DNA from: Hyphomonadaceae bacterium
GTDB taxonomy: Bacteria > Pseudomonadota > Alphaproteobacteria > Caulobacterales > Hyphomonadaceae
Length of the DNA: 49,468 nt
Direction of reading: 5' to 3'
NCBI GenBank assembly: GCA_022760335.1
Contig: JALEGE010000117.1
Location: forward strand, 1-49,468
The position numbers were made by a program, and so were the translations under genes. The first letter of the stretch is position 1; every line of letters begins with the position of its first letter. This document shows, piece after piece, positions 1-1,028 of this stretch. The notes beneath the pieces were generated by a model. It saw nothing but the letters and a program-made list of their open reading frames with translations. It made no database searches and was not told the DNA's origin.

Positions 1-57
1 GGCGTTATATGTGAAACGCTCGATGCTCTAGGTTTTTTTGTGGTCGCGCCGGCTCAT

Positions 58-84
58 GCGAAAAACCGGAGTCCACTTTTTCGC
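58..84. repeat. Inverted repeat, probable dispersed extragenic element
   Basis: A perfect 8-bp inverted repeat, GCGAAAAA (58-65) and TTTTTCGC (77-84), flanks an 11-nt loop containing CCGG. It sits just beyond the stop of the TIR gene. Similar sequences with GAAAA-CCGG-CCAC-TTTTC are, from memory, common between genes in alphaproteobacteria. It could act as a terminator for the minus-strand gene, but the stem is AT-rich and has no separate T-tract, so that role is uncertain. Confidence 0.55.
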
Positions 85-92
85 CCGGCGCT

Positions 93-1028
93 CTAGCACC
101 CGCTTATTCGGACGGTCACGCGGCCGATCCGGCAGCTTGATGAAGGAATGGCGCAATTGCCCGCGCCCATCAGATCCGCCTCGTCAATATCCTCGTCCTG
201 GACCAGCAGTGTGATGCGGTCCTGGCGCCCGGTATTCTGAAAGTTCCCGCTGGAGCAGCGATAGTCATTATCGCAACTGAAGCGGACATTGCCATGACTG
301 TCGCTGGTGACGGTAATATCTGGCCGAGGGGCGGGGAAATCCCAATTCCCGTGTGGGCCTTTCTCATCTGCGGTGATCGAAAGGCGAATGCAGGCCGGGG
401 CCTGAGGCTCTGGCGGTGGGGTTGGCTCTGGCGCAGGCGTATCGATCTCGGAAGTATCGGTCTCGGCGGTCAAGAGGGCGAGCGGCTTGTCCAGGAGGCC
501 GGTAGCATAAAGCCCCCCGCCGCCCCCGACCAACAAGATGGCCAGCACGGCATAAAGTCCCGTCCGGCTTTTCCGCCCCGGTCTGGATGAGCCGGGAGCG
601 GAGGTCGACGGTCCGATACTGCCAGGCGCTGAGCCCGTCCCGGCCACGAGACCGCGCACCCAGCCGACAAGTTTTTGGAAGCTGCGATCAGCCGGGTTGC
701 CGTCCCAGGCGCTGAGGTCGACGGTCTGCGTGCGGCGATAGGCGAGGGGGATCGAGCAGGCCTCCAGGATGACTGGAACCAGCTTGCCCTTTTCCTTGGC
801 ATAGTCGGCCTCTGTGCGCACCCATTCCGACAGAACAGAGCGAGGCGTCCACAACACAACCACGGCCTTGGCAGCGGCGATCTCCGCCTCGATTGTCTCA
901 TCCCAACTGGTATGCGGCGTGATCCGTTCATCATACCAGACCGAGAACCCGGCATCCTGCAGCTGGTGAATCGTGTCCTCTGCGAGGTGCTTGTCTTCAC
1001 GTTTGTAGGAAATGAAAATATCGGCCAT
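93..1028 (-). CDS. Membrane-anchored TIR-domain protein with cysteine-rich periplasmic domain
   Basis: 311 aa from the ATG at 1028, which has a GGGGAG ribosome site; upstream in-frame codons look non-coding. Residues 1-125 form a TIR domain: FISYKRED at the start, WYDE at 31-34, and W69-V-R-T-E73 placing E73 at the catalytic glutamate position of NAD-cleaving TIR domains. A Ser/Pro/Gly linker (131-150) and a basic GRKSR precede one membrane helix (about 157-176). A Pro/Glu-rich stalk (about 190-212) leads to a domain of about 100 residues with six cysteines (213, 252, 258, 292, 299, 311). Positive-inside logic puts TIR in the cytoplasm and the cysteine domain in the periplasm. Family knowledge suggests NAD+ hydrolysis or signalling by TIR assembly. 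The trigger and the C-terminal fold are unknown to me. It stands alone, divergent from the peptidase gene. Confidence 0.85.
   Translation of the reverse strand: MADIFISYKREDKHLAEDTIHQLQDAGFSVWYDERITPHTSWDETIEAEIAAAKAVVVLWTPRSVLSEWVRTEADYAKEKGKLVPVILEACSIPLAYRRTQTVDLSAWDGNPADRSFQKLVGWVRGLVAGTGSAPGSIGPSTSAPGSSRPGRKSRTGLYAVLAILLVGGGGGLYATGLLDKPLALLTAETDTSEIDTPAPEPTPPPEPQAPACIRLSITADEKGPHGNWDFPAPRPDITVTSDSHGNVRFSCDNDYRCSSGNFQNTGRQDRITLLVQDEDIDEADLMGAGNCAIPSSSCRIGRVTVRISGC

What the first reader, a model, noticed from the sequence alone, without database searches (positions are those of the whole stretch)
93..1028. Stand-alone TIR-transmembrane protein with a six-cysteine periplasmic domain
The sequence shows an N-terminal TIR domain with the candidate NADase glutamate E73, a basic stop-transfer signal, one membrane helix, a Pro/Glu stalk and a domain of about 100 residues with six cysteines. 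Most bacterial TIR proteins known from defence systems are soluble or paired with sensor genes. A single-chain receptor layout with an outside sensor and an inside TIR effector resembles animal Toll-like receptors in topology. A role in sensing envelope attack or phage adsorption is inference.
Basis: partly seen in the sequence, partly recalled or inferred. Interest (0 to 1): 0.6.

Follow-up and report, generated by a model that had tools for sequence, protein, structure and literature searches.

The report
Membrane-anchored bacterial TIR protein, six-cysteine ectodomain
An alphaproteobacterium carries a gene for a protein whose inner end is a probable NAD-destroying immune domain (TIR) and whose outer end is a small, rare, cysteine-rich domain; this inside-effector, outside-domain layout turns out to be common in its relatives, with many different outer domains.

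Summary
The gene is on the minus strand (1028 to 93; the finding gave none) and encodes 311 residues: TIR_2 (4-121, E=6e-26), basic stretch, one membrane helix (about 157-179), Pro/Glu stalk, and residues 209-311 with six cysteines. All six are conserved in the one full-length relative found (Hyphomonadaceae bacterium UBA5336). The TIR model matches SARM1, TcpB and PdTIR; E73 sits in a WxxxE motif, kept in 36 of 36 relatives. Between the two species the TIR is nearly frozen (dN 0.03); the outer domain changes faster but stays constrained (dN 0.23). The contrast with 'soluble or paired' TIRs is too strong: 24 of 36 relatives share the layout, with FGE-sulfatase, Sel1, CARDB, 8-Cys and other outer parts. 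The six-Cys domain itself is rare and matches no library. Its motifs resemble C2 calcium-binding loops, but profile and fold tests did not confirm this. The locus is housekeeping, not a defence island. Best reading: an inner-membrane TIR NADase switched by a disulfide-stabilised periplasmic sensor. Trigger, activity and defence role are not shown.

The parts
93..1028 (-). whole gene, 311 aa plus stop
   Evidence: ATG preceded by GGGGAG; 78% identical orthologue in UBA5336
666..1019 (-). TIR_2 domain (residues 4-121)
   Evidence: Pfam PF13676 6.2e-26; genome search places it at 666-1019; AF2 model matches SARM1/TcpB/PdTIR/AbTir
810..812 (-). E73, candidate catalytic glutamate in W69-V-R-T-E73
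   Evidence: 36/36 conserved in relatives; aligned with the W..E region of PDB TIRs 3h16, 7uxr, 7uwg
558..596 (-). basic juxtamembrane stretch (about residues 145-157)
   Evidence: net charge +4 on the N side of the helix
492..560 (-). single membrane helix (about residues 157-179)
   Evidence: hydropathy, best 19-mer 161-179, KD 1.84
399..449 (-). Pro/Glu-rich stalk (about residues 194-210)
   Evidence: sequence
96..404 (-). C-terminal domain (residues 209-311) with Cys 213, 252, 258, 292, 299, 311
   Evidence: six Cys conserved in orthologue; dN 0.23, dS saturated; no Pfam hit for the window domain
309..347 (-). first C2-like loop motif NWDFPAPRPDITV (residues 228-240)
   Evidence: motif pair absent from 200,000 shuffles of the domain; not confirmed by Pfam, hhalign or fold search
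165..203 (-). second C2-like loop motif VQDEDIDEADLMG (residues 276-288)
   Evidence: as above; not confirmed by Pfam, hhalign or fold search

Best explanation
A type II inner-membrane receptor-effector. The N-terminal TIR faces the cytoplasm, one helix anchors it, and a small disulfide-stabilised domain sits in the periplasm on a Pro/Glu stalk. A periplasmic event (ligand, envelope damage or a binding partner) clusters the outer domains; this drives TIR-TIR assembly inside, which forms the NADase site with E73 and consumes or converts NAD+, stopping or killing the cell or producing a nucleotide signal. Shown by sequence: TIR identity and fold match, WxxxE glutamate, single helix with inward positive charge, conserved six Cys, conserved TIR against a faster-changing outer domain, and a family of proteins with the same front half and interchangeable outer halves. 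Inferred: membrane insertion, disulfides, NADase activity, clustering as the switch, and any role in defence.
For: TIR_2 6e-26; Foldseek to SARM1, TcpB, PdTIR, AbTir; E73 36/36 and W69 35/36; charge bias across the helix; Cys counts after the helix are even in 24 of 24 relatives with a clear single helix (many share one origin); same architecture with FGE-sulfatase, Sel1, CARDB and 8-Cys outer parts; TIR dN 0.028 against C-terminal dN 0.231 between two species. Prior knowledge: SARM1, AbTir and other TIRs cleave NAD+ through this glutamate after self-association.
Against: No assay. No defence neighbourhood: prolyl oligopeptidase on one side, Tad pilus-like genes on the other. The outer domain has no confident model (pLDDT 46) and no identified ligand family. 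PADLOC and NCBIfam matches are partial, to the TIR only; the NCBIfam ones are far below cut-off.
Confidence: 0.5

Rival explanations
1. Membrane-anchored TIR scaffold: the TIR recruits a partner (another of the 14 or more TIR proteins in this cell, or a non-TIR effector) rather than cleaving NAD+ itself.
For: The genome has at least 14 TIR_2 proteins, so hetero-assembly is possible. In animals most TLR TIRs scaffold (established knowledge).
Against: WxxxE glutamate invariant in all relatives aligned; nearest solved matches include catalytic TIRs.
Confidence: 0.2
2. The C-terminal domain is a C2-type beta-sandwich that binds Ca2+ and phospholipid or outer-membrane lipid, so the protein reports on membrane integrity or calcium rather than on a phage ligand (a special case of the best explanation, not exclusive of it).
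For: NWDFPAPRPDITV and LLVQDEDIDEADLMG match the two acidic loop regions of C2 domains in order and spacing; the joint motif occurs in 0 of 200,000 shuffles and in no unrelated ORF among the fetched DNA; the weak AF2 model is mostly beta.
Against: The motif was drawn up after seeing the sequence. Pfam C2 does not hit it, hhalign with synaptotagmin C2A/C2B gives 0.1% probability, Foldseek finds nothing.
Confidence: 0.3
3. A part of Tad pilus biology: the TIR protein watches the pilus or envelope machinery whose TadE/TadG-like genes lie downstream, for example as a trap for pilus-borne phage.
For: In the window genome and UBA5336 the order is TIR, TadE, TadG on one strand; a third species of the genus lacks all three between the inositol monophosphatase-like gene and the peptidase gene.
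Against: About 340-450 bp separate TIR from TadE, with an inverted repeat in the window genome; TadG homologues in 13 other family genomes examined have no TIR gene within 1.5 kb.
Confidence: 0.08
4. The hydrophobic stretch does not insert and the protein is cytoplasmic; the cysteines bind metal or are reduced.
For: The helix is glycine-rich (VGGGGGLY) and of moderate hydropathy (1.84).
Against: Same position, basic flank and charge bias in more than 20 relatives, most with stronger helices; even Cys counts beyond the helix.
Confidence: 0.07

Closest known systems
Single-pass TIR_2 proteins of Hyphomonadaceae with other outer domains (e.g. L012, L032 FGE-sulfatase; L003 8-Cys; L018 CARDB; L007 Sel1)
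   Same: N-terminal TIR_2, basic flank, single helix, further C-terminal domain; E73 equivalent kept
   Different: C-terminal domains unrelated to the six-Cys domain here
SARM1, AbTir, PdTIR and TcpB-type TIR NADases
   Same: TIR fold and WxxxE glutamate
   Different: not built as TIR, one helix, outer domain (prior knowledge)
Animal Toll-like receptors
   Same: TIR inside, one helix, other domain outside (predicted here)
   Different: reverse order (LRR ectodomain first, TIR last, signal peptide); no LRR here; TLR TIRs mostly scaffold
Thoeris ThsB / ThcB4 and CBASS TIR-SAVED
   Same: partial TIR similarity
   Different: no ThsA, SAVED or cyclase partner seen beside the gene; ThcB4 score far below cut-off
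C2 domains (synaptotagmin type)
   Same: order and spacing of two acidic loop motifs
   Different: no profile or fold support; six cysteines

Membership tests
TIR_2 domain (PF13676) | score over curated cut-off | tested here: met
   91.7 bits against 28
TIR NADase | TIR fold | tested here: met
   AF2 TIR region pLDDT mostly 53-83; Foldseek E 1e-5 to 1e-4 to TIR-1, TcpB, SARM1, PdTIR
TIR NADase | catalytic glutamate in WxxxE | tested here: met
   W69-VRT-E73, E in 36/36
TIR NADase | NAD+ cleavage | not testable with these tools
   needs an assay
Single-pass TIR receptor layout | one helix after the TIR with inward positive charge | tested here: met
   +4 / -3
Single-pass TIR receptor layout | C-terminal domain outside the cytoplasm | not testable with these tools
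   charge rule and even Cys count only
Toll-like receptor | N-terminal LRR ectodomain and signal peptide, C-terminal TIR | tested here: not met
   order reversed, no LRR hit, TIR starts at residue 4
Thoeris | ThsA/ThsB pair, or ThcB4 over cut-off | tested here: not met
   ThcB4 35.7 bits against 220; ThsB only as partial PADLOC hits; neighbours are peptidase and Tad genes
C2 domain (PF00168) | profile match | tested here: not met
   no Pfam hit; hhalign 0.1%
C2 domain (PF00168) | C2 fold | tested here: inconclusive
   model pLDDT 46 with 2 sequences; no meaningful Foldseek hit

The most novel reading that the evidence does not exclude
Hyphomonadaceae carry a repertoire of single-chain, inner-membrane TIR receptors with one conserved NADase front half and many interchangeable periplasmic sensor halves, of which this six-cysteine, possibly C2-like (calcium or lipid reading) domain is a rare form: a bacterial counterpart, by topology, of Toll-like receptors that reads the envelope rather than the cytoplasm.
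Probability: 0.25. Interest if true: 0.7.

Novelty: new variant of a known kind. Interest (0 to 1): 0.42.

Why it matters
Bacterial TIR immunity as described so far mostly senses events in the cytoplasm. A repertoire of single-pass TIR proteins with diverse outer domains would move sensing to the envelope and give a simple test bed: swap outer halves on one TIR front half and ask what triggers NAD+ loss. My searches of the held papers found no description of this class in Alphaproteobacteria, which is not proof that none exists.

Tried and rejected
Homologues of the six-Cys domain: order (398 genomes), class (385), phylum (398), viral contigs and plasmids gave only UBA5336 and a degraded fragment in G197 (L041, between two genes, one Cys lost). 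Weaker hits looked like chance (frames with stops or overlapping other genes). Pfam C2 over 105 family genomes: nothing in the window genome, no match over the cut-off anywhere. hhalign to synaptotagmin C2: no support. AF2 of the whole protein and of the C-terminal domain: C-terminal part at pLDDT about 23-56, so Foldseek hits of it were disregarded. PDB profile search of the domain: two chance fusion-protein hits. Tad pilus link: not conserved. Papers: searches gave conflict-system work with TIR and FGE domains (PMC7159879, PMC10907252) and a TIR survey saying prokaryotic TIR groups have diverse architectures (PMC7075850), but no single-pass TIR receptor family.

Full report
What is there. 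The gene runs on the minus strand from ATG at 1028 to a stop at 93-95. The finding gave no strand; read on the plus strand the interval has four stops. The start is preceded by GGGGAG. The product is 311 residues: TIR_2 at 4-121 (PF13676, E=6.2e-26), a basic stretch RPGRKSRTG, one hydrophobic segment at about 157-179, a Pro/Glu stalk, and a final ~100 residues with C213, C252, C258, C292, C299 and C311.

TIR domain. The AF2 model of the whole protein, made with two sequences, has a TIR part of pLDDT mostly 53-83, with one weak loop. Foldseek places it with C. elegans TIR-1, TcpB/BtpA, SARM1, PdTIR and AbTir. phmmer against the PDB gives 3h16, 7uxr, 7uwg and AbTIR 8g83. E73 lies in W69-V-R-T-E73, the WxxxE arrangement of SARM1 and AbTir (established knowledge for the catalytic role). 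In 36 aligned TIRs from this family E73 is invariant and W69 is 35/36. That is sequence and fold evidence for an NADase-type TIR; activity is untested.

Membrane and outer part. Net charge is +4 before and -3 after the helix, which predicts TIR inside and C-terminus outside. The TIR begins at residue 4, so there is no room for a signal peptide; the protein is type II, the reverse order of a Toll-like receptor. The same bias is seen in more than 20 relatives, and their cysteine counts after the helix are even in all 24 with a clear single helix. That is consistent with disulfides in an oxidising compartment, though many of these relatives share one origin, so the 24 are not independent.

Relatives. 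Only one full-length orthologue was found: Hyphomonadaceae bacterium UBA5336, same genus, 78% identical, all six cysteines kept. Between the two, the TIR has dN 0.028 (dS 0.84), while residues 209-311 have dN 0.23 with saturated dS. So the effector half is nearly frozen, and the outer half changes faster but under constraint. The outer domain was found nowhere else in 398 order, 385 class and 398 phylum genomes, viral contigs or plasmids, apart from a degraded fragment in G197.

The layout is common. The window genome has at least 14 TIR_2 genes. Of 36 aligned family proteins, 24 have TIR, basic flank, a single clear TM and a further part. Those further parts include FGE-sulfatase (L012, L032), Sel1 repeats (L033; L007 with a weaker helix), CARDB (L018), an 8-Cys domain (L003, L011, L021, L024, L026) and others without a Pfam name. 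In a class sample, further single-TM TIR_2 proteins with other C-terminal parts appear (L076, L083, L085, L086, L092).

What the outer domain might be. Pfam finds nothing in the window's domain. By eye, NWDFPAPRPDITV and LLVQDEDIDEADLMG resemble the two acidic loop regions of C2 domains. A joint pattern occurs in none of 200,000 shuffles and in no unrelated ORF of the fetched DNA, but I wrote that pattern after seeing the sequence. Pfam C2 over the family does not hit the window genome, hhalign to synaptotagmin C2A/C2B gives 0.1%, and the isolated-domain model is at pLDDT 46 with no meaningful fold match. I hold the C2 reading at about 0.3.

Neighbourhood. The start of this contig overlaps the start of contig C36, giving the order prolyl oligopeptidase (divergent), TIR, ~450 bp with an inverted repeat, TadE, TadG, an inositol monophosphatase-like gene and an XRE-type regulator. 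UBA5336 has the same order (Pfam names). A third species of the genus has the monophosphatase-like gene next to the peptidase with no TIR or Tad genes between, so the block was gained or lost. In the 13 other family genomes whose TadG loci were fetched, no TIR lies within 1.5 kb. There is no defence island, and PADLOC and NCBIfam give only partial TIR matches.

Mechanism. Most likely the outer domain senses something in the periplasm, clustering or rearranging the protein so that TIRs assemble and E73 cleaves NAD+. The steps after topology are inference. Rivals are a non-catalytic scaffold, a C2-type calcium or lipid sensor, a Tad pilus monitor, and a cytoplasmic protein.

Literature. A TIR survey notes that prokaryotic TIR groups have diverse architectures (PMC7075850). 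Two papers describe TIR and FGE/C-type-lectin domains in conflict systems, mostly as effectors and sensors linked to NTPases (PMC7159879, PMC10907252). A TIR NADase tethered by an N-terminal transmembrane helix has been studied in an amoeba after transfer from bacteria (PMC13142454), where removing the helix made it toxic. No paper found in the held library describes the alphaproteobacterial single-pass family; absence there is weak evidence.

Verdict. Observation confirmed, interpretation partly supported, ordinary front half, uncommon outer half. Interest 0.42.

Noticed in passing
window 1-97 and L064 1-105: The contig start overlaps the start of another contig (C36) of the same genome at an inverted repeat (CCTAGAGCATCG...CGATGCTCTAGG), probably why the assembly broke there.
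   Followed up: yes
L003, L011, L021, L024, L026: A second single-pass TIR family with an eight-cysteine outer domain, found in five genomes including the window's; more widespread than the six-Cys form and a better target for structure prediction.
   Followed up: partly
L012-L015, L019, L020, L022, L025, L027, L030, L032, L034, L037: TIR-TM proteins with an FGE-sulfatase-like outer part (Pfam-confirmed for L012 and L032, the rest by sequence likeness) and six cysteines, widespread in the family; FGE (C-type lectin fold) domains are the variable sensors of some DGR systems.
   Followed up: partly
G094 contig C16 3811-22467; G633 contig C504 3130-15103: Clusters of four to five TIR_2 genes within about 12-19 kb, suggesting local duplication.
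   Followed up: no
[quoted passage not shown]
   Followed up: partly
L009 8001-11178; L065: TIR, TadE and TadG are present together in two species and absent together in a third at the same locus.
   Followed up: yes
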